From the NCBI GenBank assembly GCA_945860565.1, contig CAMAQS010000011.1, positions 1 to 45,129 on the forward strand: 45,129 nt of DNA, written 5' to 3'. Below the pieces are notes generated by a model. The model saw nothing but the letters and a program-made list of their open reading frames with translations. It did not search any database and had not been told where the DNA came from. The DNA comes from Chitinophaga pinensis (GTDB lineage: Bacteria > Bacteroidota > Bacteroidia > NS11-12g > UBA955). This document shows, piece after piece, positions 11,778 through 34,937 of the stretch (position 1 is its first letter; each line of letters opens with the position of its first letter). The position numbers and the translations under genes are program-made.

Positions 11778-12722
11778 TTAATTTAAAAGCAAAAAGCTGA
11801 AGTATTCTAAGAAAAACAAAATCCAATATAATTTATAAAATTTCTTCAATGATGTTTGGTTTGAAATATCCGTTTTTAATGCCATAATCACAAACGCTAC
11901 GAATGTAATAATGTGAAATACAATGAAATATAACAAACCAAATGGTAAATGCGCTTGGTTAGTTTGTGTGTAAATATCGTTATTAAGATAATTTAAAATC
12001 CCCCAAAAAATAAGAAAAAGATAACCAGCTCCTACAGTGGTTGTCCCTAAATTCATGGCTGTTTTTCTCGAAAATCTGACTGCTACTGTACGAATATTGT
12101 ATTTTAAATCTCCTTCTGTGTCAGGTAAATCCTTAAACCAAGCAATCCCTAAACTAAAACAAGTCATAAACACCGTCAATGGCAACATCCAGAATTCTAC
12201 AATAAATTGCCCTTCTTTAAATTGAATGAAGTGAAGTGCCACACCCACATTTACCAATGGCCCTCGAACCAATGAAATGGCCATTGCTGCCCAGAAATGA
12301 AAACGTTTAAAACGAATAGGCGGAATGGAATATGCAGCTCCTAAAAGTAGAATGGTGAATATCAAACATCCAAAATAAAAACTTAAAAAAAAAGAGATGA
12401 TTAATGCCATAAACAGCCCAAAAAATGAAATTATTTTGCCTTGTTTTAAAGTCAAATCACCTGTTATTAATGGTAAATTGGGCTTATTAAGTGCATCTAT
12501 ATCACGGTCGTACACTTGATTTATTCCGGTAATAAAAAGATTGCAAGCCAAACATGCGAAAAGAGTTTGTAAATAAAAAATAATTGAATTTGAATGTAAT
12601 GCTTCTTCAAATTTGAATACCAATAAAAACAAAATACTTATGCTTATAATACTACCAATGATAGTATGGGGTCTGCTAAATTTCCAAACAGATTTAAAAA
12701 AATTATTCCTTTTCAATTCCAT
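11778..12722 (-). CDS. Homogentisate phytyltransferase-like UbiA prenyltransferase
   Basis: A 314-residue inner-membrane protein with about nine helices. The first UbiA Asp motif is INQVYDRDIDALNKPNLP (residues ~64-81) and the second is KDLPDTEGD (~196-204). The whole run, including WKFSRPHTIIGS at the N-terminus, AYSIPPIRFKRF in the middle and FYKLYWILFFLEY at the C-terminus, follows cyanobacterial and plant homogentisate phytyl/prenyltransferases (Slr1736/VTE2), as I remember them, more closely than MenA or UbiA proper. These enzymes join a prenyl diphosphate to homogentisate with loss of CO2, the committed step to tocopherols and plastoquinone. The gene is divergent from the phytol-kinase fusion with 34 bp between start codons. 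The prenyl donor and acceptor are inferred. Confidence 0.78.
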   Translation of the reverse strand: MELKRNNFFKSVWKFSRPHTIIGSIISISILFLLVFKFEEALHSNSIIFYLQTLFACLACNLFITGINQVYDRDIDALNKPNLPLITGDLTLKQGKIISFFGLFMALIISFFLSFYFGCLIFTILLLGAAYSIPPIRFKRFHFWAAMAISLVRGPLVNVGVALHFIQFKEGQFIVEFWMLPLTVFMTCFSLGIAWFKDLPDTEGDLKYNIRTVAVRFSRKTAMNLGTTTVGAGYLFLIFWGILNYLNNDIYTQTNQAHLPFGLLYFIVFHIITFVAFVIMALKTDISNQTSLKKFYKLYWILFFLEYFSFLLLN

Positions 12723-12756
12723 ACAAAGTTCAGTAAATCCATGGATATTTGCTTAA

Positions 12757-14211
12757 ATGTGGGAATTATTTAAAATCCAGCTAGTTGGTATCGTATTGAG
12801 CATATTTTGTACAGTATATTGGTCTAAATTATATCCCAAACACTTATTTTTATCCCGAAAAATATTACACATTTTGGTAATTTCGCTAAGCGGAAATATC
12901 ATTTTTTTGCTTCCAGATGAATATTTAAAAATCGTTATTATAATTATATCAATTTCGAGTTTTATTCTGTTTTTTCTGGTTCAGAAGGGATTTTTTAAAT
13001 CAGATCAACGAAAAAGTTGGGGCATTTTTTATTTTCCCGTTGGCTTATTATTTCTGTTGCTGGTATTTCCAAATGAACGCGAATTAATTGGAATTGCATA
13101 CTATATTTTGGCTTTTTCAGATGGCTTTTCAGCTATATTTGGACGATTGTCGCCTATTTGGTTGCCCTCCAAATTTCGGAAAATCAATCATATAAATTGG
13201 AGTCCTGATTCGAAAACAATGATCGGATCAATGGTATTTGCTTTATCTACGGCATTGATTTTATGGTTATTTCTTTCCGCTGATGCAGCCTCCAATTTTA
13301 AAAATCTGGTTGCAGTAATTTGGTTTATTGCATTAATTTTAATGGGAGTGGAATTATCTGCATCCAAAGGTAGCGACAACCTTTTTGTTCCCATATTTGG
13401 GTTTTTGTTTTTGCATAATATCGAAAATATTTTTCTTATGTTAAATGAACATCTCATTTACTATTTACCCTTATTACTCATGGGTATTGTTTTCATAAAA
13501 AAATTCAATTGGTTATCTAATTCTGGTATTTTCCAAGCAATTTTATTATTGACTTCAATGGTTATGGCTAAATTTACACTATTGCCAATATTGTTGTTTT
13601 TTATATTGGGTTCTATTTCAAGTAAATTAAATAAAGTACAGAAATCAGATAGCAAACATGGTAAGGCCCGCGATGGGTATCAGGTTCTTGCAAATGGAGG
13701 TGTTGTTTTATTATTGGCTTGGTTAAAAATTGAATCTCAAAATGAAATATTTAGTATACTCATGTATGTTTCAATTTGTATTTCTATGGCCGATACATTT
13801 AGCAGTGAATTTGGTATGAAATTCGGTGGCCAACCATGGGATATAATTAGATTTAAAAGAATAAATCAAGGCTTGAGCGGTGGAGTTAGTTTAGCTGGAA
13901 CCATTGCATCATTTATGGGGGCAGGGATTATTTCTTTATGTTATTTTTACCTCCATTCTGATGGCTTTGTGACTTTATTAATCTTATTTAGTGGTGTAAT
14001 GGGCTCTCTAGTTGATAGTGTCTTAGGGAGTTTATTTCAACCGAAATTTAAATCGGAATTTGGGGAAATTATGGATTTTGGAAAAAAAGAAGACAGAGTT
14101 TCGGGATATGCTTTGTTTTCAAATGATTTTGTAAATTTTCTAAGCAATGTAATCGTAACTGGTTTGTCTTATTTTGCGATTTTAGTTTATTTTATGTATT
14201 TATTTGGTTGA
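12757..14211 (+). CDS. Fused phytol kinase (VTE5-like) and phytyl-phosphate kinase (DUF92/VTE6-like)
   Basis: A 484-residue polytopic membrane protein with two family signatures in tandem. Residues ~1-235 resemble the dolichol/phytol kinase family: LSRKILHI, YYILAFSDGFSAIFGR, SKTMIGS, and VELSASKGSDNLFVPI. Residues ~240-484 are DUF92: SKHGKARDGYQVLANGG, then MADTFSSEFG and NQGLSGGVSLAGT. In plants and cyanobacteria separate VTE5 and VTE6 proteins phosphorylate phytol to phytyl-P (CTP-dependent) and then to phytyl-PP. Here both would be in one chain, divergent from the homogentisate phytyltransferase-like gene. Geranylgeraniol or another prenyl alcohol could be the real substrate. The ATG at 12757 follows an imperfect -7 element by 5 nt. 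Confidence 0.8.
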   Translation: MWELFKIQLVGIVLSIFCTVYWSKLYPKHLFLSRKILHILVISLSGNIIFLLPDEYLKIVIIIISISSFILFFLVQKGFFKSDQRKSWGIFYFPVGLLFLLLVFPNERELIGIAYYILAFSDGFSAIFGRLSPIWLPSKFRKINHINWSPDSKTMIGSMVFALSTALILWLFLSADAASNFKNLVAVIWFIALILMGVELSASKGSDNLFVPIFGFLFLHNIENIFLMLNEHLIYYLPLLLMGIVFIKKFNWLSNSGIFQAILLLTSMVMAKFTLLPILLFFILGSISSKLNKVQKSDSKHGKARDGYQVLANGGVVLLLAWLKIESQNEIFSILMYVSICISMADTFSSEFGMKFGGQPWDIIRFKRINQGLSGGVSLAGTIASFMGAGIISLCYFYLHSDGFVTLLILFSGVMGSLVDSVLGSLFQPKFKSEFGEIMDFGKKEDRVSGYALFSNDFVNFLSNVIVTGLSYFAILVYFMYLFG

Positions 14212-14444: not shown

Positions 14445-17400
14445 ATGAAAATGAAGAGTACAATCCGAATAAATCAAAAACTACTTTTGTATTTTAACCG
14501 ATGTGTAAGTCAAATGGTTACTCACGTTAAAATGATGGTTTTACTTGTTGTAATAGGTTTGGTTTTGCCAAAATTAAAAGCACAATCGATTAGTATTATA
14601 TCCTCAACTCAACCTTCCTGTTTTGGTGGAAATAATGGAAGTATCACTGCTCAAGTAATTGGAGGTACAGCAGATTATCAGTTTGAAATAGATTCGGGAC
14701 AGGCAATTTTAACTTATTTCGCATTACAAGTTTCAAATTCATTTACTTTTAATAATCTACGTTCGGGTATGAGTTATACCATTCGTTGTAAAGACCTCAA
14801 TGGTGGTGGTGGGCCATATTCTAGTGCTATTGTGAATCTTTCGCAACCAAGTAGTTTATTAAAACCGAATGCATCTAAAGTTGATGTTCTATGTAAAGGA
14901 AACAGCACTGGTTCTGTTTCTTGTGTTCCTTCAGGTGGCGGAAATGTGGTATCTTATTTTTGGTCGCCAATAGGAGTTAATACCCAAACAGTAAATTCTC
15001 TTCCTGCTGCGGTTTATACAGTCACCGTAACCGACGACAATGGTTGTTCTCAAAGTGAAATAATTGAGATTTTGGAGCCTTCATTTAATTTATCTGCAAC
15101 AGCGCCATCAAATCTAAGTTCAAATGTATCTTGTAATGGTGGTAGTAATGGAAGTGCTACTTGTGTTGCAATTGGTGGAACATCGCCTTATACTTACAGT
15201 TGGAATACAAGCCCAGTTCAAACAAATGCTGTAGCAACTAATTTAACGGCGAATAACTATATATGTACTGTTAAAGACAATAATAATTGTCAAACCACTG
15301 CGAGCATAACTATTACACAACCTACACCAATTGTAGTTACTACTACTCCAACAAATTCATTGTGTAATGGTAATAGTAGTATCAGTTTCTCAGCAACTGG
15401 AGGTGTAGGAGTGATAAATCAATTTGACATAAACAATGCGGGTAATTTTTCAATTATTTCCTCAATTTCTAATTTAGTAGATGGGAATTACATAATTACA
15501 GCGAAGGATGCAAATAATTGTTTAAAATCTAGTTCCGTTACCATTACCCACACAGACAATGTAGCCCCCACAGCCATTGGCAAATACATAACATTAAATT
15601 TAAATTCTTCTGGAACTGCATCTATAACTGCATCATCAGTTAATAACGGAAGTAACGACAATTGCAATGCAGTGCTATCTATCGATAAATCAAGTTTCAC
15701 CTGTTCTGATACAGGTCAAGTACCTGTAATTTTAACTGCAACAGATCCTGATGGACGTAAAGATACAGCTTTGGTATATGTCCTTGTTAAAGATATAACC
15801 CCACCAGTAATTGCAAATTATGCCCTTACTAAAGTGTACATTAACAATTTAGGTGCTGGTACTTTAACCGGTTTAATGCCAGATAGCGCATCCACAGACG
15901 AATGTGGAATTTTTAAAAGAACAGTTTGGCGTCAAGCATTTCAATGCACCGATGCCAATCAAAATTTTTCAGGAAATTTTGAGGTGAGAGATATCGCAGG
16001 CAATATCTCCAATAAAACAATCACAGTTAGAGTCTTGGATACACTTAGACCAACTACTTTGGTCGTTAAAAACATCAATGTTTATCTTAAACAAACAGGA
16101 AAAGATACAATTGGTTATGCGGATCTATTTACCAGTGCATCAGACAATTGTGGAATCAGTAAAATTTATATCTCAACTGCCAGCGACAGTGTTTTTGATT
16201 GTTCCAAAAAAGGAATTAATAAAGTAAAACTTTTTGTTGAAGATGCTTCTGGGAACAAAAGATGGTCGGAATCTACAGTAACAGTTCTAGATACCTTAAA
16301 ACCCGATTCATTGAAAGTTCAAAATGTAACCTTGTTTCTAGATGTTAATGGAACAGCCACTCTCCACGATACCGATGTGGTTAAATATACGAGAGATAAT
16401 TGTGGAGTTGTAGATACAACATTGCAAAAATACAGTTTCGATTGTTCCAATTTAGGAAACAATAATTTAAAGGTAACCATTGCTGACGCCTCTGCAAATA
16501 AACTTGAAAAAACAGTTAATATCACGGTTTTAGATACCATTAAACCAACTCCAATTGTAGTTAAAAGCCCACTGGTTTATTTGGATAGTTTTGGCAATGC
16601 CAGCCTCACATGGATGGATGTATTTACCAGTTCATCAGATAATTGTGGAATCACAAATTGGTTTTTAACGGATTCAGTTTTTACCTGCTCAGATACGGGT
16701 ACATTTAAGATTACCGCTACAGTCGCAGATGCTTCGGGAAATGTTACCACCAAAGAAGCAACTGTAATTCTAAAAGATACCCTTGCTCCTTTCAATTTAA
16801 TATTGAAAGATACGGTTTATGCTTTCCTAGATAATTCAGGCAATTATAAAATCAATAACCTGGATGTTATTCTTAACGTAGAGGAAAATTGTGCAATCAG
16901 TAAAGTTGTTTATTCCGATAGCATTTTCAATTGTTCAGATCTTGATTCTTTTAGAATTTTTGTGGCTATCTACGATTATTCTAATAACCTAACTTTTGAT
17001 TCATTTGAATTATTGTTATTTGATTCCACACCACCTATTGCAAAGTCCCATACAAAAGATACATTTTATTTAAATACTTCTGGTGCTGTCAACATAACAC
17101 CTTTTGATATTGACAATGGTAGTTCAGATAACTGTTCTGGATTTTCAAGGTCTATAAACATTAGTTCATTCTTTTGTAACAGTGCAAGCAAAAGAACAAA
17201 TGTAATTTTAACAGTAACAGATGCGTCTGGCAATGTTTCAAAAGATACAAGCGATGTACTTATTTTAGACACCGTAAAACCCATCATTATTTTAAAGAAT
17301 CCTAAACTTTACCTTAATTCTGCAGGTAAAGACACTTTGCATTTGTGGCAAGTAGATGGAGGTAGTTATGATAATTGTACAATAAAAAGAAGAACTTTAA

Positions 17401-19229
17401 GCGATACTCTTTTTGATTGTTCAAAGGTGGGTAATAGAAGTATCAACTTTATAGTTGAAGACATTAATGGCAATATTTCTATGGCGATTTTAAATTTCCA
17501 AGTTTTGGATACCATTTCACCTGTTTTAACAGTTAAGAATACAACCATTTTCATTGACACTTCTGCAAAAGCAACTTTGAAGGAATCCGATGTCGTAATA
17601 TCTAAAACAGATAATTGTCAAACAGACAGCCTTCTATTAAGTAAAATTATTTTTAATTTATCCAATGTCGGTAACAACAATGTAGTGGTTACATTAAAAG
17701 ACAAAAATGGCAATGTCGTTAAAAAGACAGTTATTGTAAACGTAGTAATCGGTGATTCAGACAATGACAAAATTCCAGACTATATCGAGAAAAATAAAGA
17801 TACTGATATGGAGGGAATTTTGGACTATTTAGACCAAGATTCTGACAATGATGGTTTAATTGATAGTGCCGAAAATAATAGTCTAGCAACATTAATTGAT
17901 ACCGACAATGATTTAATTCCAAATTACTTAGATTTAGATTCAGATAATGACGGTATTAACGATGTGATTGAATTAAATGTTGCAGACTTGGATTCTAACG
18001 GAATAAAAGATAATTTAAATCTGGTAATTTTTGTAGCAGTTGATACCGATTTAGACGGACTTTCAGATTATAAAGATTTAGATTCAGACGCTGATGGATT
18101 AAAAGATCTTTACGAAAGCTTAAAGAATTATACAGATGCCAACAATGATGGTATTGTAGATGGAATTGACAGTGATTTAGATGGAATATTAGATAATGCA
18201 GATAAATATGTTGGATTTGGAGATAAATTGGATATCTATCCCGTGGATACCGATAAAGATCTAATACACGATTGGCGCGATACCGACTCGGATGGAGATA
18301 AAATTCCAGACAAAGTAGAAACTTTTGCCGATTTTGATGTGGATGGGTTTCCCAATTATAGAGATCTAGATTCAGATGGTGATTCTATTAAGGATAGCAT
18401 AGAAGCAGGTTCAAATGGCAATATTCCTGTAGATACCGATGGTAACAATGATCCAGATTATTTAGATTTAGATTCTGATGACGATAAGATTTTGGATCAA
18501 CTTGAGGCAGGTTCAGACCCTAATAATCCTGTTGACACTGATTCAGATGGATCTTATGATTTTAGAGACTTAGATTCAGATGATGATTCAATTTCGGATG
18601 AATACGAAGCCGGTACCGATCCCAACAACCCCGATGATTCGGATTCAGATGGTATTTATGATTTCAGAGAGACAGATTCAGACAACGATGGTATTTCTGA
18701 TAAAAATGAAGCAGGTTCTGATCCATTAAATCCATTGGATTCCGATGGGGATGGATTGGATAATTTTAGAGATCCAGATTCTGATAATGACGGTATCAGT
18801 GATAAGGTAGAAGGTGAAATAGATACCGATGGTGATGGAGTGAAAAATTATATTGATGTAGATTCCGATAATGACGAAGAAACAGACAGTAGAGAAGGTA
18901 CTAAAGATCAAGATGGAAATGGAATACCTGATTACATAGATGCCCAGATTAGAATACCAGAAGGCTTTTCTCCAAACAGCGACGGCGTAAACGATTTGTT
19001 CTATATCAAAGGATTACAAGTCTTTACCAAAGCAGAAGTAATTGTGTTTAATAGGAATGGACAGGTTGTTTTTGAATCGTCTAGACCATACAACAACAAA
19101 TGGGATGGTTCTAATCAATCCAATTTGCCAATTGCCGGTGATCTTCCAGAAGGTCTTTATTATTACGTGTTTAAATTTAATGGTCAGAACAGAGAGCCAA
19201 TTACAGGTAATTTTTATATCAAACGCTAA
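14445..19229 (+). CDS. Giant SprB-repeat adhesin with gliding-motility-type C-terminal domain (T9SS type B)
   Basis: The 1594-residue product is modular. Residues 1-47 are a long signal peptide ending in LKAQ. About 48-370 hold SprB-type repeats (each with CxGxxxGS and a YTVTVTDDNGC-like strand). Residues 371-1102 hold nine ~81-residue repeats (D-T-x-x-P at each start, a central DNC and a later F-x-C, a likely disulfide pair, followed by DASGN). About 1103-1500 are Asp-rich thrombospondin type 3-like, presumably Ca2+-binding, repeats. Residues 1502-1594 are the CHU_C/TIGR04131-type domain (PEGFSPNSDGVNDLF ... GNFYIKR). By family knowledge it is exported by the T9SS and held at the surface by a PorP/SprF protein, which is the next gene. 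The role in adhesion or gliding is inferred. Confidence 0.88.
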   Translation: MKMKSTIRINQKLLLYFNRCVSQMVTHVKMMVLLVVIGLVLPKLKAQSISIISSTQPSCFGGNNGSITAQVIGGTADYQFEIDSGQAILTYFALQVSNSFTFNNLRSGMSYTIRCKDLNGGGGPYSSAIVNLSQPSSLLKPNASKVDVLCKGNSTGSVSCVPSGGGNVVSYFWSPIGVNTQTVNSLPAAVYTVTVTDDNGCSQSEIIEILEPSFNLSATAPSNLSSNVSCNGGSNGSATCVAIGGTSPYTYSWNTSPVQTNAVATNLTANNYICTVKDNNNCQTTASITITQPTPIVVTTTPTNSLCNGNSSISFSATGGVGVINQFDINNAGNFSIISSISNLVDGNYIITAKDANNCLKSSSVTITHTDNVAPTAIGKYITLNLNSSGTASITASSVNNGSNDNCNAVLSIDKSSFTCSDTGQVPVILTATDPDGRKDTALVYVLVKDITPPVIANYALTKVYINNLGAGTLTGLMPDSASTDECGIFKRTVWRQAFQCTDANQNFSGNFEVRDIAGNISNKTITVRVLDTLRPTTLVVKNINVYLKQTGKDTIGYADLFTSASDNCGISKIYISTASDSVFDCSKKGINKVKLFVEDASGNKRWSESTVTVLDTLKPDSLKVQNVTLFLDVNGTATLHDTDVVKYTRDNCGVVDTTLQKYSFDCSNLGNNNLKVTIADASANKLEKTVNITVLDTIKPTPIVVKSPLVYLDSFGNASLTWMDVFTSSSDNCGITNWFLTDSVFTCSDTGTFKITATVADASGNVTTKEATVILKDTLAPFNLILKDTVYAFLDNSGNYKINNLDVILNVEENCAISKVVYSDSIFNCSDLDSFRIFVAIYDYSNNLTFDSFELLLFDSTPPIAKSHTKDTFYLNTSGAVNITPFDIDNGSSDNCSGFSRSINISSFFCNSASKRTNVILTVTDASGNVSKDTSDVLILDTVKPIIILKNPKLYLNSAGKDTLHLWQVDGGSYDNCTIKRRTLSDTLFDCSKVGNRSINFIVEDINGNISMAILNFQVLDTISPVLTVKNTTIFIDTSAKATLKESDVVISKTDNCQTDSLLLSKIIFNLSNVGNNNVVVTLKDKNGNVVKKTVIVNVVIGDSDNDKIPDYIEKNKDTDMEGILDYLDQDSDNDGLIDSAENNSLATLIDTDNDLIPNYLDLDSDNDGINDVIELNVADLDSNGIKDNLNLVIFVAVDTDLDGLSDYKDLDSDADGLKDLYESLKNYTDANNDGIVDGIDSDLDGILDNADKYVGFGDKLDIYPVDTDKDLIHDWRDTDSDGDKIPDKVETFADFDVDGFPNYRDLDSDGDSIKDSIEAGSNGNIPVDTDGNNDPDYLDLDSDDDKILDQLEAGSDPNNPVDTDSDGSYDFRDLDSDDDSISDEYEAGTDPNNPDDSDSDGIYDFRETDSDNDGISDKNEAGSDPLNPLDSDGDGLDNFRDPDSDNDGISDKVEGEIDTDGDGVKNYIDVDSDNDEETDSREGTKDQDGNGIPDYIDAQIRIPEGFSPNSDGVNDLFYIKGLQVFTKAEVIVFNRNGQVVFESSRPYNNKWDGSNQSNLPIAGDLPEGLYYYVFKFNGQNREPITGNFYIKR
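15555..17750 (+). repeat. Nine tandem ~81-aa Ig-like repeats in the adhesin
   Basis: Nine copies diverged in sequence but fixed in length (732 residues in total). Each starts with a D-x-x-x-P phrase and most have the DNC / C-S cysteine pair. Repeat 2 has DECG in place of DNC, repeat 6 has EENC, and repeat 9 has lost the second cysteine (IFNLSN). Confidence 0.85.
17754..18941 (+). repeat. Asp-rich TSP3-like repeat array in the adhesin
   Basis: About 395 residues of DxDxDG loops separated by short linkers such as DYLDLDS and EAGSDPNNP. Period is irregular. One unit shares 23 identical bases with the array in the downstream OmpA gene (18678-18700 versus 22501-22523). Confidence 0.85.
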
Positions 19230-19247: not shown

Positions 19248-20198
19248 ATGAGAAAAATACTTTTAAACCTAATAATAAGCACTTATTTTATGTTAGGTTG
19301 CATAATAAATACGAATGCTCAACAAGAGCAAATGTATTCCCATTATGATTATAATACATTGGCCATAAATCCAGCTTACGCTGGGGCTAAACAAACATTT
19401 GTCGCCAATAGTCTTGCTCGCCTTCAATGGTTAAATTTGCCCGGTGCACCAAGATATTATAATTTAGGAGTGCATAGTCCACTTGTAAAAGATTTTGGAG
19501 TCGGTCTAAATTTACAAACTGGTTCTTTGGGAAAGTTTAAAAATGCAAGTCCTTTATCAGAAACGCAAATTGCCGGTAGTATTGCTTATAATAAACAACT
19601 AACAGAAAATTTAAGATTAGCAGTTGGATTAAGACTCGGAGTATATAATTACAATATCAATCTATCTCAAATGCAACTTTACGATCAGTCTGATGCCGCT
19701 TACAAAAACAATGATATAAATATTACTGCCCCATTAACAGGGTTTGGTGTTTATTTATATTCAGAGAAATTCTTTACAGGAATATCGGCTCCAAGAATGT
19801 TGTTTATTCCAACTGAATTGAAAAATGATATAAATATTCAATTGATAGCTGTTACACAATTTTATGGGTTTGCAGGTTATGTTTTTGACGCTTCACAAGA
19901 TTTAAAAATTAAAACAACCACTCAAGTTAAAGTCGCCCAAGGTATTCCCGTTCAAATAGATTTAAATGCACATGCAATTTATTTAGAAGATTATTCAGTT
20001 GGATTATTTTACCGAACTGGTGGTGAAGCTGGTTTGATGGCAACTGTTAACTTAAATCCAAATTTTACCGTAGTTTATTCTTATGACCACCGATTGGCAC
20101 CATTAAATACTTATGTTAATGGTTCTCATGAATTTGGCCTACAATATAAGATTCCCTATGTTTCAAATAGTCGTGTAAGAGTACCTAGATATTTTTAA
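19248..20198 (+). CDS. PorP/SprF family outer-membrane protein (type IX secretion)
   Basis: The 316-residue protein has a signal peptide (ends TNAQQ) and the family opening QMYSHYDYNTLAINPAYAGA, then alternating beta strands expected of a ~14-strand outer-membrane barrel, as in the TIGR03519 family. SprF of Flavobacterium johnsoniae is needed for surface display of SprB, and PorP-like proteins accept type B cargo. Its position 18 nt after the type B adhesin gene and 1 nt before the OmpA gene matches the sprB-sprF order. This copy is probably the dedicated partner of the upstream adhesin rather than the core PorP of the secretion machine. Confidence 0.92.
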   Translation: MRKILLNLIISTYFMLGCIINTNAQQEQMYSHYDYNTLAINPAYAGAKQTFVANSLARLQWLNLPGAPRYYNLGVHSPLVKDFGVGLNLQTGSLGKFKNASPLSETQIAGSIAYNKQLTENLRLAVGLRLGVYNYNINLSQMQLYDQSDAAYKNNDINITAPLTGFGVYLYSEKFFTGISAPRMLFIPTELKNDINIQLIAVTQFYGFAGYVFDASQDLKIKTTTQVKVAQGIPVQIDLNAHAIYLEDYSVGLFYRTGGEAGLMATVNLNPNFTVVYSYDHRLAPLNTYVNGSHEFGLQYKIPYVSNSRVRVPRYF

Positions 20199-20199
20199 A

Positions 20200-23100
20200 A
20201 TGAGAAAAAATTTAACCATTCAAAAATTAGTTAATCCCAATGTTTTCATGTTGTTATTAACCTTTTTTACCTTAAACCAAACCTTCTCTCAAGCTTCTTT
20301 AGTAAACAAACTAAATCAACATAAATATGCTGAAATCGTTCGGCGAAACAATAACAAGACACGGTCAAAATTTAATGATTATTTAAATCAACGGGCCTTA
20401 GCTTTTTCATATGCTCAAATGGATGTTCCTGAAAAAGCGTTCGATGCATACTCAGAATTGCTTGAAAGATACACAGATAGAGTAGATGCTGTTGATAAAT
20501 TGAATTTTGCACTTAGTGCACGAAAAATGGAATTATATGGTCTATCTGATAGCATTTTATTGTCGCTTAAAGATACTGCATTTATAGGTTTACCACTTTT
20601 TGAAGAATTAACTCAACAATTCTTTATTGAAAATAAAGATAAACGAGCAAACTATTGGGAAGAGTTCGATTTTATTGATAACTATAATATTAAAGCATTT
20701 CCTCAAAATAGCAAAATGGGTGAATATGGCCTAGTAAAGGATGGAAAAGGTTACTGCTATTATTCAACACATAAACAAAAAGGTCTTTGGAAAATTCTAT
20801 CAGCAACCCACGAACAGCCATACCATAAAGTTTACCGCGCAAGATATTCCGATAGTTCTTTTATAATGGAGAAGGAAGCTTCGCTAAATAAAAGCCGCAC
20901 AAACCAACATGTTAGTTTCGTTGATCAAAAAACAGGTTGGATTTATATTACCCGAAATGCTCAAGATCCAAATAGAAACAATGAAAAAGTTTTACAGATT
21001 TATGCAATGAAACCTGACGCAACAGGTAAAAAGTGGATAGAAATGCCTTTTCATTTAAATAATACCAATCATTCGCTTGCAGATTTAGTTATATCTCCTG
21101 ATAGAACAAGAATTGTTTTTGCCTCAGATATGCCCGGTGGTTATGGTAAGTCAGATTTGTATGAAGCACCCATTATTCGCGATGATGAAAATGGAATAAA
21201 AGTAGGCCAACCAGTTAATCTAGGTCCACAAATTAACACCATGTTGCGGGACAATTTTCCGAGATTTTCCGATTCTGGAGATTTCTATTTCTCTTCTGAA
21301 GGACATTTGGGCTTCGGTGGATTGGACATCTATACTGTCGATAAAAATTCTAGTATGATTTTGAATTTAGGTAGACCTATTAACTCTAATATGGATGATT
21401 TTGCAGGCTCCTTTCACGATAAATGGGGAAGTTTGTCCTCGAATAGAAATACCAATTCATTCAACGACAATATTTATTATTTCCAATGGCATGAGGACAT
21501 TAAAAATGAAACCATTGAAGAAAAGTCAACAAAAGATGGTGTGATTGTAAAAGTTGTTGACGACGATTCTAATGAACCTTTACCTGCCGTTCGAGTTGCT
21601 TTTGATAATTTAGAGGACGAAGAAAGAGCCGTTCAATTCACAACCGATTCTTTGGGTTTTATAAAGTATGATAGTATGCTAAAATCTGCTAAAGTACAAA
21701 TAGCAGTGCATCCATGTGGATATAAATATTCTGCAACTGAAGATTTTAAACTAAATAAAAAAGGACAGAAAGTTTTTACCATTAGAGCACAAAAATATAG
21801 AGTAGGTGAAGATTTAGGTTTACTATTTAATGTTAAACCTATATATTTTGAATCAAATAGCTATAAACTTACAATTCAAAGTAAAGATGAATTAGATAGA
21901 GTAGCTTTAGTCCTAAAAGACAATCCTGGATTATTAATTGAATTGGGTGCGCATACCGACTCTAAAGGTACAGATGCAAACAACTTATTATTGTCTGAGA
22001 ATAGAGCAAAATCAGTCTATTCTTACTTAAATCAAAGAGGTATTACCAAACAGAGGTTAAAGTATAAAGGCTTTGGTGAATCCAAATTACTGAACAAATG
22101 TCTTAATGGTGTTAATTGTTCTGATCAAGAACATCAAATAAATCGGAGAACAGAGTATATTATTAGTGGTTTAATTCCATGTGATGGCTCATTTGTGCAG
22201 CCTCCAATTGAAAATGTAGATCAACTCGCAAGTACAAATGAAAATGGATCTAATGTTGATAAAACAATTAAACCATCTGATGTAAAGTTGGCGAATTCTG
22301 TAGATAAAACTAACAATAAAAAGAATAACAACAAAAAGGATAAAACTTCAAATGAAACTTCAGGAAGTGATTCTAAAGACACTAAGAATTTAGTTAAGCA
22401 AAAGGAACCATTGGTAGTAAACAATGAACCAGTGGATCAAACGCCTCTTAAAATAGGTGACGCTGACGCTGACGGTATTCCAGATTATTTAGATTCTGAC
22501 TCAGACAACGATGGTATTTCTGACGCAATTGAAGGTAGAAGAGATTCTGACAACGATGGTTTGCCTAATTTTATTGATAAAGATTCTGATAATGATGGTC
22601 TAACCGATGCTTTTGAAGGCTCATTGGATTTTGATAAAGATGGTAAGTCAAATGCAACAGACACTGATTCAGATAACGATGGTATTTTGGACAAAACCGA
22701 AGGTTCTGAAGATTTTGACAATGATGGCAATCCCAATTACTTAGATTTAGATTCTGATAACGATGGAATTTCTGACAAGTTGGAAGGAATGAAGGATGTT
22801 GATTCTGATAACATTCCAAATTACCTTGATCTTGATTCAGATGGTGATGGTTTAAATGATTCAGATGAGACCGGTAAAGATATTGATAAAGATGGGAAGC
22901 CAAATTATTTGGATTTGGATTCTGACAATGACGGAATTTCAGATGAAGTTGAAGGTTTAAGAGATTCTGATAAAGACGGAAAAGCAGATTTTATTGATAC
23001 AGATAGCGATGAAGATGGTATTCCTGACAAATTTGAAGGTCCTGGCAATTACAAAGCATATAAGCCTACTGACCAGTTATCAAGAAATGACAATTCAAAC

Positions 23101-23385
23101 ACGGTTAAAAATAACAATAATGTAAAATCAGGTTCCGATAATTCACAAGATATTATTTATAGAGTTCAAATAAAAATGTCTGGTAAACCAATGAATAAAA
23201 GACAATTTAAAGTCTTAGGATTTAATGATTATTTTGAATATCGCGACGGAATTTATTATAAATACACTACAAGTGAAGTTTTCAAATCTGAGGAACAAGC
23301 GGAAAACAGAAAACAAGAAATCCGCAATAATGGAATACCAGATGCCTTTGTTGTTAAATTCCAGAACGGGAAACGAATAAACTAA
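20200..23385 (+). CDS. PorE-like OmpA protein with TSP3-like array and C-terminal SPOR domain
   Basis: A 1061-residue envelope protein. Order: signal peptide (~1-31, ends TFSQA); a TPR-like helical region (~32-130); a PD40/WD40-type propeller (~170-430, with blades such as MPGGYGKSDLYEA); a carboxypeptidase-regulatory-like domain (~447-530); an OmpA peptidoglycan-binding domain (~540-658, with HTDSKGTDANN and NRAKSV supplying the Asp and Arg); a Lys/Asn/Ser linker; exact 28-residue TSP3-like repeats (754-947); and a C-terminal SPOR domain (984-1061, YRVQIK ... DAFVVKFQNGKRI). The first half matches T9SS PorE-type proteins that tether the machine to murein. The TSP3 and SPOR additions are unusual. 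It starts 1 nt after the PorP/SprF stop. Confidence 0.85.
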   Translation: MRKNLTIQKLVNPNVFMLLLTFFTLNQTFSQASLVNKLNQHKYAEIVRRNNNKTRSKFNDYLNQRALAFSYAQMDVPEKAFDAYSELLERYTDRVDAVDKLNFALSARKMELYGLSDSILLSLKDTAFIGLPLFEELTQQFFIENKDKRANYWEEFDFIDNYNIKAFPQNSKMGEYGLVKDGKGYCYYSTHKQKGLWKILSATHEQPYHKVYRARYSDSSFIMEKEASLNKSRTNQHVSFVDQKTGWIYITRNAQDPNRNNEKVLQIYAMKPDATGKKWIEMPFHLNNTNHSLADLVISPDRTRIVFASDMPGGYGKSDLYEAPIIRDDENGIKVGQPVNLGPQINTMLRDNFPRFSDSGDFYFSSEGHLGFGGLDIYTVDKNSSMILNLGRPINSNMDDFAGSFHDKWGSLSSNRNTNSFNDNIYYFQWHEDIKNETIEEKSTKDGVIVKVVDDDSNEPLPAVRVAFDNLEDEERAVQFTTDSLGFIKYDSMLKSAKVQIAVHPCGYKYSATEDFKLNKKGQKVFTIRAQKYRVGEDLGLLFNVKPIYFESNSYKLTIQSKDELDRVALVLKDNPGLLIELGAHTDSKGTDANNLLLSENRAKSVYSYLNQRGITKQRLKYKGFGESKLLNKCLNGVNCSDQEHQINRRTEYIISGLIPCDGSFVQPPIENVDQLASTNENGSNVDKTIKPSDVKLANSVDKTNNKKNNNKKDKTSNETSGSDSKDTKNLVKQKEPLVVNNEPVDQTPLKIGDADADGIPDYLDSDSDNDGISDAIEGRRDSDNDGLPNFIDKDSDNDGLTDAFEGSLDFDKDGKSNATDTDSDNDGILDKTEGSEDFDNDGNPNYLDLDSDNDGISDKLEGMKDVDSDNIPNYLDLDSDGDGLNDSDETGKDIDKDGKPNYLDLDSDNDGISDEVEGLRDSDKDGKADFIDTDSDEDGIPDKFEGPGNYKAYKPTDQLSRNDNSNTVKNNNNVKSGSDNSQDIIYRVQIKMSGKPMNKRQFKVLGFNDYFEYRDGIYYKYTTSEVFKSEEQAENRKQEIRNNGIPDAFVVKFQNGKRIN
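22498..23040 (+). repeat. 84-bp exact-period repeats (28-aa TSP3-like units) in the OmpA gene
   Basis: Units begin at 22498, 22582, 22666, 22750, 22834, 22918 and 23002, a constant 84-bp step; the last is partial. Each encodes DSDxDGxxD, then a Glu-Gly turn, then a second D-x-D-x-D/N loop and xNYLDL. A half unit precedes at 22459. Confidence 0.93.
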
Positions 23386-33390: not shown

Positions 33391-33431
33391 ATTTGGCTCT
33401 TTAACCCATTTTTTACAACTTGCAGTATCTC

Positions 33432-34937
33432 ATGATTTCATCTGCAATAAGTTGGTATTTTAGACAACGCCATCAGGAACTATGGCAAATGTCTACTAAT
33501 TCAACAAAATACCAGCTTGAATTGTTGGAGTATTTTACAGAAAAGCTTTCTAGAACGGCTTATGGTATTTCTTTGGGAGTTAAAGATAGTATAGAATACG
33601 AAGAATTTAAAAAGAGAGTTCCAATTGCTGTTTATGAAGATCTAAAGCCCTATATCTTAAGATCTATGAATGGGGAACAGAAATTGATTTGGCCTGCAGA
33701 CATCACATGGTTTGCTAAAAGTTCCGGAACAACAAGCAATGAACCTAAATTTATACCAATAACGTTTGAAGCTTTAGAGTACAATCACTTTAAAGGAAGT
33801 AAGGAACCCATAACACAATTCTTTGATTTTAGTCCAGATGCTAAAATTTTTGATGGAAAGGGTTTGTTAATAGGCGGATCTCATAAGGTCAATCAGATGA
33901 ATTCTAAATCATATTACGGTGATTTAAGTGCCGTACTAATGAGTCACATGCCCACTTGGGCGAATTGGAAAAGCACGCCCGATTTACATATTGCCATTAT
34001 GGATAATTGGGAGGAAAAATTAGAAAAAATGGCTTTGGCAACAATTCAAGAAAATGTTACAAGCATTAGTGGAGCTCCAACTTGGTCTTTGGTTTTGCTT
34101 AACAGGATTTTAGAAATTACTGGAAAGTCTAACGTCCACGAGGTTTGGCCAAATCTAGAACTTTTTATTCATGGGGGAATGAGTTTTGAACCTTACAGAC
34201 AAAAGTTTCTTTCCATTTTGTCAGATCCCAAAATGACTTACATAGAAACATATAACGCAAGTGAAGGATTTTTTGGTGTCCAAGCAGCTTTGGGTAAAAA
34301 GGAAATGTTGCTAATGACCCATCATGGTGTTTTTTATGAGTTTTTTCCTGTTAATGAACCACCAGAAAATGCAATTCCGCTTTGGGAGGTTATTCCAAAT
34401 GTAAATTATGGTATGATAATTACCAACAATAGCGGATTATGGCGCTACTTAATTGGAGATACTGTTATGTTTTCTTCATTAAATCCGCCGCTTTTTAAAA
34501 TAACAGGAAGAACTAAACTGTTTATAAACGCTTTTGGGGAAGAACTAATAATCGATAATACAGAAACTGCCATTGCCAATACTTGTCATGTTTTAAATCA
34601 GAGTTTGGTCGATTACACGGCAGCACCAAGATTTGAAAAAGGTTCTGAAGGACATGAATGGATTATTGAATTGGAAGAACCAATTATAGACAAAGAATTG
34701 TTTATAAATTTGTTAGATGAAAATCTTAAAAAAGTGAACTCGGATTACCAAAGTAAAAGAAATGGCGATATTTTAATGAAATTACCTACGGTACATTTTG
34801 TTCCTAAAGGCACTTTTAACCTTTGGTTGCAAAAGAAAGGTAAACTTGGTGGTCAAAATAAAGTTCCGCGTTTATCAAATTCTCGATTACTTTTAGATGA
34901 AATTTTGTCCGCATTTAAAAATGCAGCTTCAAATTAA
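33432..34937 (+). CDS. GH3 family acyl-acid amido synthetase-like protein
   Basis: The 501-residue protein belongs to the GH3 branch of the adenylating superfamily. The nucleotide loop is FAKSSGTTSNEPKFIPIT (near residue 95-112), and the later YNASEGFFGVQ and LIGDTVMF ... ITGRTKLFINAFGEEL match the A5/A8-type motifs. Plant GH3 enzymes adenylate hormones such as auxin and jasmonate and join them to amino acids. Bacterial members are common in Bacteroidota and their substrates are unknown. The ATG at 33432 is preferred to an in-frame TTG at 33420. It follows the ATPase gene by 41 nt and may share its transcript. Confidence 0.85.
   Translation: MISSAISWYFRQRHQELWQMSTNSTKYQLELLEYFTEKLSRTAYGISLGVKDSIEYEEFKKRVPIAVYEDLKPYILRSMNGEQKLIWPADITWFAKSSGTTSNEPKFIPITFEALEYNHFKGSKEPITQFFDFSPDAKIFDGKGLLIGGSHKVNQMNSKSYYGDLSAVLMSHMPTWANWKSTPDLHIAIMDNWEEKLEKMALATIQENVTSISGAPTWSLVLLNRILEITGKSNVHEVWPNLELFIHGGMSFEPYRQKFLSILSDPKMTYIETYNASEGFFGVQAALGKKEMLLMTHHGVFYEFFPVNEPPENAIPLWEVIPNVNYGMIITNNSGLWRYLIGDTVMFSSLNPPLFKITGRTKLFINAFGEELIIDNTETAIANTCHVLNQSLVDYTAAPRFEKGSEGHEWIIELEEPIIDKELFINLLDENLKKVNSDYQSKRNGDILMKLPTVHFVPKGTFNLWLQKKGKLGGQNKVPRLSNSRLLLDEILSAFKNAASN

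What the first reader, a model, noticed from the sequence alone, without database searches (positions are those of the whole stretch)
11778..14211. Divergent pair encoding a possible complete prenyl-alcohol-to-prenylquinol route, with the two kinases fused
The minus gene follows homogentisate phytyltransferase along its whole length (SRPHTIIGS, INQVYDRDIDALNKPNLP, KDLPDTEGD, C-terminal LFFLEY). The plus gene joins a VTE5-like phytol kinase and a DUF92/VTE6-like phytyl-phosphate kinase in one 484-aa chain. In plants and cyanobacteria these three activities turn free phytol into the tocopherol precursor. The remaining genes look non-photosynthetic, so this may be salvage of algal phytol (or geranylgeraniol) into a tocopherol-like antioxidant or quinone. 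The fusion would channel the monophosphate. I cannot tell whether this fusion has been described.
Basis: partly seen in the sequence, partly recalled or inferred. Interest (0 to 1): 0.85.

Follow-up and report, generated by a model that had tools for sequence, protein, structure and literature searches.

The report
Possible phytol-to-prenylquinol salvage gene pair
An apparently non-photosynthetic Bacteroidota bacterium carries, back to back, a vitamin-E-type prenyltransferase gene and a fused pair of phytol-activating kinases, suggesting that it turns chlorophyll's phytol into an antioxidant-like quinol; the fusion itself is common in the phylum, but its link to this prenyltransferase is rare and conserved.

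Summary
Window 11778-12722 (-) encodes a homogentisate-phytyltransferase-type UbiA protein: 251 bits against NCBIfam's cut-off of 226, both Asp-rich motifs present, grouping with cyanobacterial HPTs and apart from the genome's four other UbiA proteins. Window 12757-14211 (+) joins a VTE5-like phytol-kinase domain to a VTE6/DUF92 domain, with 34 bp between the two start codons.

The fusion is not unusual in the phylum and mostly occurs without HPT. What is unusual is its link to HPT. Of 41 non-cyanobacterial HPT loci with enough flank, 34 have the DUF92 gene divergently beside HPT, 28 of them fused. Outside the window's lineage, 26 of 29 also have an undescribed class-I methyltransferase directly upstream of HPT. 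In two Saprospiraceae MAGs without the fusion beside HPT, a geranylgeranyl-reductase-family gene lies near HPT instead.

Best reading: CTP-dependent salvage of a prenyl alcohol, probably algal phytol, to phytyl-PP, then prenylation of homogentisate (HPPD present). The methyltransferase was not found in this genus, nor a tocopherol cyclase in this genome, so the likely product is MPBQ-like, not tocopherol. All activities and the substrate are inferred, none shown.

The parts
11778..12722 (-). HPT-type UbiA prenyltransferase (314 aa); first Asp motif N68/D72/D76, second D198/D201/D205
   Evidence: NF009525 251 bits, cut-off 226; motif residues invariant in 11 relatives; tree with cyanobacterial HPTs
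12757..13449 (+). N-terminal half of the fusion: VTE5-like (phytol/prenyl-alcohol kinase type) domain, about residues 1-231; R34 K35 xx H38, G89, D122, K153, G157, E199, D207 N208
   Evidence: profile hits separate ~240-aa ORFs in 10/10 cyanobacteria; shared motifs; best PDB match CdsA, Z 7.7
13450..14208 (+). C-terminal half of the fusion: DUF92 / VTE6-like (phytyl-phosphate kinase type) domain; R305 D306, Q309 V310 N313, D346 T347 xS349 S350 E351, S374 G375, D420 S421, N456
   Evidence: PF01940 E 1.9e-50; conserved residues; best PDB match CarS 5guf, Z 7.0, residues 329-479
12723..12756 (.). 34-bp divergent intergenic region between the two start codons (11-77 bp in most relatives without the methyltransferase; negative values in three probably reflect over-long ORF calls)
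   Evidence: gap list

Best explanation
The pair is a prenyl-alcohol salvage route feeding a homogentisate prenyltransferase. The N-terminal half of the fusion uses CTP to phosphorylate a free prenyl alcohol (most likely phytol released from algal chlorophyll); the C-terminal DUF92 half adds the second phosphate to give prenyl (phytyl) diphosphate; the HPT on the other strand joins this to homogentisate made by HPPD, releasing CO2 and PPi and giving 2-methyl-6-prenyl-benzoquinol (MPBQ-type). Most other HPT-bearing Bacteroidota then probably C-methylate the ring with a clustered methyltransferase; that gene is not found in the window's genus. Shown by computation: gene identities, conservation, linkage, HPPD presence. 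Inferred: all catalytic activities, phytol as substrate, homogentisate as acceptor, the role as membrane antioxidant or redox quinol, and any channelling.
For: HPT model above its equivalog cut-off and far above ChlG/MenA/UbiA models; clade with cyanobacterial HPTs, apart from the genome's own MenA, CyoE and two DGGGPS-like proteins. DUF92 half over the Pfam cut-off. N-half profile detects cyanobacterial stand-alone proteins in 10/10 genomes with the same motifs. AF2 model pLDDT 88, pTM 0.86; N-half and C-half each match best a CTP-using intramembrane enzyme, CdsA (Z 7.7) and CarS (Z 7.0). Linkage: 34/41 non-cyanobacterial HPT loci have DUF92 divergently adjacent, 28 fused; of the 29 loci outside the window's carB-linked lineage, 20 have the fusion and 26 the methyltransferase. 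The methyltransferase model's closest folds are the aromatic C-methyltransferases CouO and NovO (Z 16). In Saprospiraceae L094/L123 a GG-reductase-family gene lies near HPT instead, i.e. the other route to phytyl-PP. HPPD in 34/38 HPT-bearing genomes including this one. Of 11 genomes of the window's family other than G000 that were tested, none has a GG-reductase-family gene over cut-off, so a phytyl tail would have to come from outside. No ChlG-type protein among the genome's five UbiA proteins, in line with a non-phototroph.
Against: No biochemical data. The fusion is common in the phylum without HPT, so its substrate need not be phytol for HPT. TIGR00297 on the DUF92 half stays under its cut-off (89 of 206). 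Some HPT-bearing relatives keep DUF92 but have no detectable VTE5-like protein (G065, G067, G069, G508), so the first kinase step is dispensable or done otherwise there. The window's own genome has one GG-reductase-family gene on contig C139 (206 bits, cut-off 159), so a de novo route to a reduced tail cannot be excluded for it. The structural Z values are modest for helical proteins.
Confidence: 0.6

Rival explanations
1. Same enzymes, other tail: the kinases salvage geranylgeraniol or farnesol (recycled from the cell's own isoprenoids) and HPT makes a geranylgeranyl-type (tocotrienol- or plastoquinone-like) quinol; phytol is not involved.
For: Plant FOLK and VTE5 are related and differ in substrate (PMC9782597, PMC10849223). 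Most module-bearing genomes tested lack a GG-reductase-family gene over cut-off. The fusion also occurs in many genomes without HPT.
Against: Prenyl diphosphates are made de novo in these cells (established knowledge of bacterial isoprenoid synthesis), so linking two salvage kinases to HPT would seem unnecessary for a GG tail; in L094/L123 a GG reductase takes the kinases' place near HPT, which points to a reduced, phytyl tail.
Confidence: 0.25
2. The UbiA protein is a relative of HPT acting on another aromatic acceptor, so the product is not an MPBQ-type quinol although the tail is salvaged.
For: Only 251 bits (cut-off 226) for the window protein, compared with 510 for a cyanobacterial HPT and 377 for the Calditrichota one. 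UbiA acceptor specificity cannot be read from sequence here.
Against: HPPD, which makes homogentisate, is present in 34/38 of these genomes; a C-methyltransferase-like gene is clustered with HPT in most lineages; cyanobacterial HPTs nest inside the Bacteroidota HPT tree.
Confidence: 0.12
3. The fusion is a CTP-dependent lipid cytidylyltransferase or another lipid enzyme, and its neighbourhood with HPT is incidental.
For: Closest folds are CdsA and CarS, cytidylyltransferases; the fusion often occurs without HPT.
Against: Divergent adjacency is kept in 34/41 loci, in different gene neighbourhoods; the N-half matches the cyanobacterial ~240-aa family with phytol-kinase-like motifs; COG1836/VTE6 proteins are tied to phytyl-phosphate metabolism in the literature (PMC5694494, PMC9782597, PMC3223725).
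Confidence: 0.05

Closest known systems
Plant/cyanobacterial phytol salvage to tocopherol: VTE5 (phytol kinase, Synechocystis P74653), VTE6 (phytyl-phosphate kinase, COG1836/DUF92), HPT (VTE2)
   Same: All three enzyme families are present and linked; HPPD supplies the acceptor
   Different: VTE5 and VTE6 are one polypeptide here; the genes are adjacent; the host looks non-photosynthetic; no cyclase (VTE1) found in this genome
Stand-alone VTE5-VTE6-type fusions across the phylum (e.g. L205-L212, L214-L224)
   Same: Same two-domain architecture of about 480-570 aa
   Different: No HPT within three genes in the loci read, and HPT in only 2 of 395 sampled genomes of the phylum; the fusion must serve something else there
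Cyanobacterial HPT locus (L114, L131, L137 etc.)
   Same: HPT family; a methyltransferase in the neighbourhood in 8 of 10
   Different: Methyltransferase of a different family (UbiE/ArsM-like hits); kinases not beside HPT (0/10)
CdsA (4q2e/4q2g) and CarS (5guf) CTP-dependent intramembrane enzymes
   Same: Best structural matches of the two halves; CTP use would be shared
   Different: They transfer CMP to a lipid phosphate; the kinases are expected to transfer a phosphate

Membership tests
Homogentisate phytyltransferase (HPT, NF009525) | Whole-protein score over the curated equivalog cut-off | tested here: met
   251.1 bits, cut-off 226; ChlG, MenA, DGGGPS models far under theirs
Homogentisate phytyltransferase (HPT, NF009525) | Two Asp-rich motifs for Mg-prenyl-PP | tested here: met
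   NQVYDRDID and KDLPDTEGD; motif residues invariant in 11 relatives
Homogentisate phytyltransferase (HPT, NF009525) | Clade with known HPTs rather than MenA/CyoE/DGGGPS | tested here: met
   fork support 83/78; no chlorophyll synthase or plant HST reference in the tree (ChlG excluded by score only)
Homogentisate phytyltransferase (HPT, NF009525) | Prenylates homogentisate | not testable with these tools
   needs an enzyme assay
DUF92/VTE6 phytyl-phosphate kinase | PF01940 over its cut-off | tested here: met
   172.1 bits, cut-off 27.5, residues 241-467
DUF92/VTE6 phytyl-phosphate kinase | TIGR00297 over its cut-off | tested here: not met
   89.3 bits, cut-off 205.85; a family-of-unknown-function model that another fusion of the phylum (L205) also fails (114 bits)
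VTE5-type phytol kinase | Shared profile and motifs with cyanobacterial stand-alone relatives | tested here: met
   (10/10 genomes, E 1e-16 to 1e-24), motifs.
VTE5-type phytol kinase | PF01148 CTP_transf_1 over its cut-off | tested here: inconclusive
   No hit for the window N-half; cyanobacterial relatives also score none or under cut-off
VTE5-type phytol kinase | CTP-transferase-superfamily fold | tested here: inconclusive
   Best PDB match CdsA, Z 7.7, rmsd 5.4 over 163 residues; Z under 8 can be chance for helical proteins
Tocopherol pathway | HPPD | tested here: met
   C31, 451.8 bits, cut-off 277
Tocopherol pathway | Tocopherol cyclase (VTE1, PF14249) | tested here: not met
   None in the genome (87.7% complete) at E<=1
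Tocopherol pathway | MPBQ methyltransferase | tested here: inconclusive
   The HPT-linked methyltransferase family is not found in G000 and six genus mates; plant or cyanobacterial VTE3 models were not searched

The most novel reading that the evidence does not exclude
Uncultured, non-photosynthetic, largely lake-dwelling Bacteroidota scavenge phytol from algal chlorophyll and make their own tocochromanol-type prenylquinols from it with a dedicated locus (fused phytol/phytyl-P kinase, C-methyltransferase, HPT), contrary to the textbook rule that only photosynthetic organisms make this lipid class; some Saprospiraceae have a de novo version with GG reductase and a cyclase-like protein.
Probability: 0.45. 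Interest if true: 0.78.

Novelty: new variant of a known kind. Interest (0 to 1): 0.58.

Why it matters
Reviews state that tocochromanols are made solely by photosynthetic organisms (PMC5745509, PMC9515888). A conserved HPT locus in apparently non-photosynthetic Bacteroidota, coupled to prenyl-alcohol kinases, would break that rule at least up to the quinol precursor. It would also give a fate for phytol, a very abundant lipid released from algal chlorophyll, and offer a one-polypeptide phytol-to-phytyl-PP activator for vitamin E engineering. It makes the question what VTE5/VTE6-type proteins do outside phototrophs directly testable with one two-gene expression experiment.

Tried and rejected
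Assembly or frameshift artefact: rejected, the fused ORF recurs in many genomes. UbiA as MenA, CyoE, DGGGPS or chlorophyll synthase: rejected by scores; the genome's own MenA, CyoE and DGGGPS-like paralogues lie elsewhere. Sequence homology between the two halves: profile-profile comparison gives probability 10.6% only, so an internal duplication is not supported by sequence. Solved structures by sequence for the fusion: none. Fusion as unique to this locus: rejected. Papers on the fusion: full-text searches found none describing it. The founding VTE6 paper (vom Dorp 2015) and PlantSEED (Seaver 2014) are not held, so prior mention of bacterial VTE5-VTE6 fusions cannot be excluded; Gerdes 2011 (PMC3223725) already predicted COG1836 to act in phytol-phosphate metabolism. 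TRIC and MgtE structural matches to the C-half were taken as common helical arrangements.

Full report
Observation. The two ORFs are at the stated coordinates with 34 bp between start codons. The minus-strand protein scores 251 bits with NCBIfam's homogentisate phytyltransferase equivalog (cut-off 226); the chlorophyll-synthase model gives 72 of 313 and MenA 13.8 of 277. The plus-strand protein carries DUF92 on residues 241-467 (172 bits, cut-off 27.5). Its N-terminal half has no Pfam or NCBIfam match.

What the N-terminal half is. A profile of this half from 14 sequences, relatives included (A4), finds a separate gene of about 240 aa in all ten cyanobacterial genomes tested (E 1e-16 to 1e-24). 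The shared motifs are RKxxH, a G followed by F/Y, D-G-x-x-A-x-x-G, K-S/T-x-x-G-S and E-x5-G-x-D-N. AlphaFold2 gives the fusion pLDDT 88 and pTM 0.86. The closest solved structures are CdsA for residues 10-224 (Z 7.7) and CarS for residues 329-479 (Z 7.0), both CTP-using intramembrane lipid enzymes (Foldseek also ranks CdsA first). The Z values alone would be weak, but it is notable that both halves independently pick the expected superfamily. The halves do not resemble each other by profile.

The genome. G000 is a Bacteroidota assembly of 2.39 Mb, 87.7% complete. It has five UbiA proteins: heme O synthase, MenA, two DGGGPS-like and the HPT. None is a chlorophyll synthase, in line with a non-phototroph. 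HPPD is present (451.8 bits); tocopherol cyclase is not found. One GG-reductase-family gene sits on contig C139 (206 bits, cut-off 159); its specificity is unknown, and none of the genus mates tested has one over cut-off.

Conservation and linkage. The divergent pair is kept at the same place, beside carB, in nearly all genus mates in which the fusion was found. In other genera it sits in unrelated neighbourhoods (L044, L045). A scan of 84,980 genomes with the HPT profile gave 443 relatives, the best 80 kept: 69 non-cyanobacterial loci with a called HPT ORF and 10 cyanobacterial. In the 41 non-cyanobacterial loci with more than 3.2 kb upstream, 34 have DUF92 divergently adjacent, 28 fused to the VTE5-like half and 6 alone; 26 have a methyltransferase directly upstream of HPT. 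All 26 lie among the 29 loci outside the carB-linked lineage. Apart from HPT, the kinase and the methyltransferase, the families that recur belong to the shared gene order of one lineage. Cyanobacterial HPT loci have neither (0/10), but 8 of 10 carry a different methyltransferase. The record titles of these MAGs point largely to lakes (Erken, Baikal and others).

The methyltransferase. It has no family match in Pfam or NCBIfam in the Bacteroidota members scanned and only weak generic hits in the Calditrichota one. Its model (pLDDT 94) is a class-I SAM methyltransferase whose best matches are the aromatic C-methyltransferases CouO and NovO (Z 16). It is not found in G000 or six genus mates, so the window's lineage presumably stops at the unmethylated quinol or uses another enzyme.

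A natural control. In Saprospiraceae L094 and L123 the kinases are not beside HPT; a GG-reductase-family protein lies divergently next to HPT in L094 (TIGR02032 216.7 bits, cut-off 158.8), and a homologue 80% identical lies two genes upstream in L123. Reduction of GGPP is the other known way to phytyl-PP (established knowledge). The same genomes have a divergent tocopherol-cyclase-family protein (73-76 bits, cut-off 26.6). By contrast, of 11 genomes of the window's family other than G000 that were tested, none has a GG reductase over cut-off. This exchange of neighbours is the best indirect sign that the donor is phytyl-PP; it rests on two related MAGs only.

The fusion by itself. In 395 genomes sampled across the phylum, 272 have some match to the fusion profile, a large share of those listed over both halves, but only two have HPT at E <= 1e-25. 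In the 19 such regions read in which the kinase gene was recovered there is no HPT or clustered-type methyltransferase within three genes, and no partner common to all families. So the fusion is a general device in the phylum, and HPT seems to have been paired with it in some Bacteroidia. Some HPT-bearing lineages kept DUF92 and have no detectable VTE5-like half; [quoted passage not shown]

Mechanism. Step 1 (inferred): N-half, prenyl alcohol + CTP to prenyl-P. Step 2 (inferred): C-half, prenyl-P + CTP to prenyl-PP. Step 3 (inferred, strongest by family): HPT, homogentisate + prenyl-PP to MPBQ. HPPD for homogentisate is shown to be encoded. CTP preference of VTE5 and VTE6 is from the literature (PMC9782597). 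Phytol as the alcohol is the most likely reading, with geranylgeraniol or farnesol as the main alternative.

Verdict. The conserved HPT-kinase-methyltransferase module in apparently non-photosynthetic bacteria is the interesting part.

Noticed in passing
L096:3594-4325, L087:4196-4924 and others (alignment A3): Undescribed class-I SAM methyltransferase family with no Pfam/NCBIfam match in the Bacteroidota members scanned, directly upstream of HPT in 26 of 29 loci outside the window's lineage; fold closest to aromatic C-methyltransferases.
   Followed up: partly
L094:8775-9953 (-) and L123:1-1011 (+); L143, L144: Saprospiraceae MAGs with HPT near a geranylgeranyl-reductase-family gene, and a tocopherol-cyclase-family (PF14249) protein elsewhere in the same genomes: a possible fuller tocochromanol route in non-phototrophs.
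   Followed up: partly
L124:5167-6859 and L145: Calditrichota MAG with HPT (377 bits), a convergent copy of the same methyltransferase family, and a PF14249-like protein in the genome.
   Followed up: partly
L070, L072, L076, L083: Lineage with HPT beside DUF92 alone and no detectable VTE5-like protein in the genome: the first kinase step is lost or replaced.
   Followed up: partly
window 14445-19229, 19248-20198, 20200-23385: 1594-aa protein with SprB repeats and a type IX secretion CHU_C domain, followed by what look like a PorP/SprF-type and an OmpA-type protein rich in DSDNDGISD repeats; conserved beside the fusion in the genus.
   Followed up: no
G000:C2:2138-2995 and G000:C98:1654-2592: Two DGGGP-synthase-like UbiA proteins in the window's genome, of unknown role in a bacterium.
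   Followed up: no
G000:C139:1534-2691: Geranylgeranyl-reductase-family protein (206 bits) on a 3.8-kb contig, not found over cut-off in genus mates; G+C content fits the genome.
   Followed up: partly
window 33420-34937: Protein that by eye looks like a GH3-type acyl-adenylate family member, next to a glycine C-acetyltransferase-like gene; not searched.
   Followed up: no
record titles of L061, L064, L067, L076, L091: Several lake MAGs are labelled Chitinophaga pinensis or Chryseobacterium gleum although several share the gene order of the window's unnamed Bacteroidota lineage; the names look unreliable.
   Followed up: no
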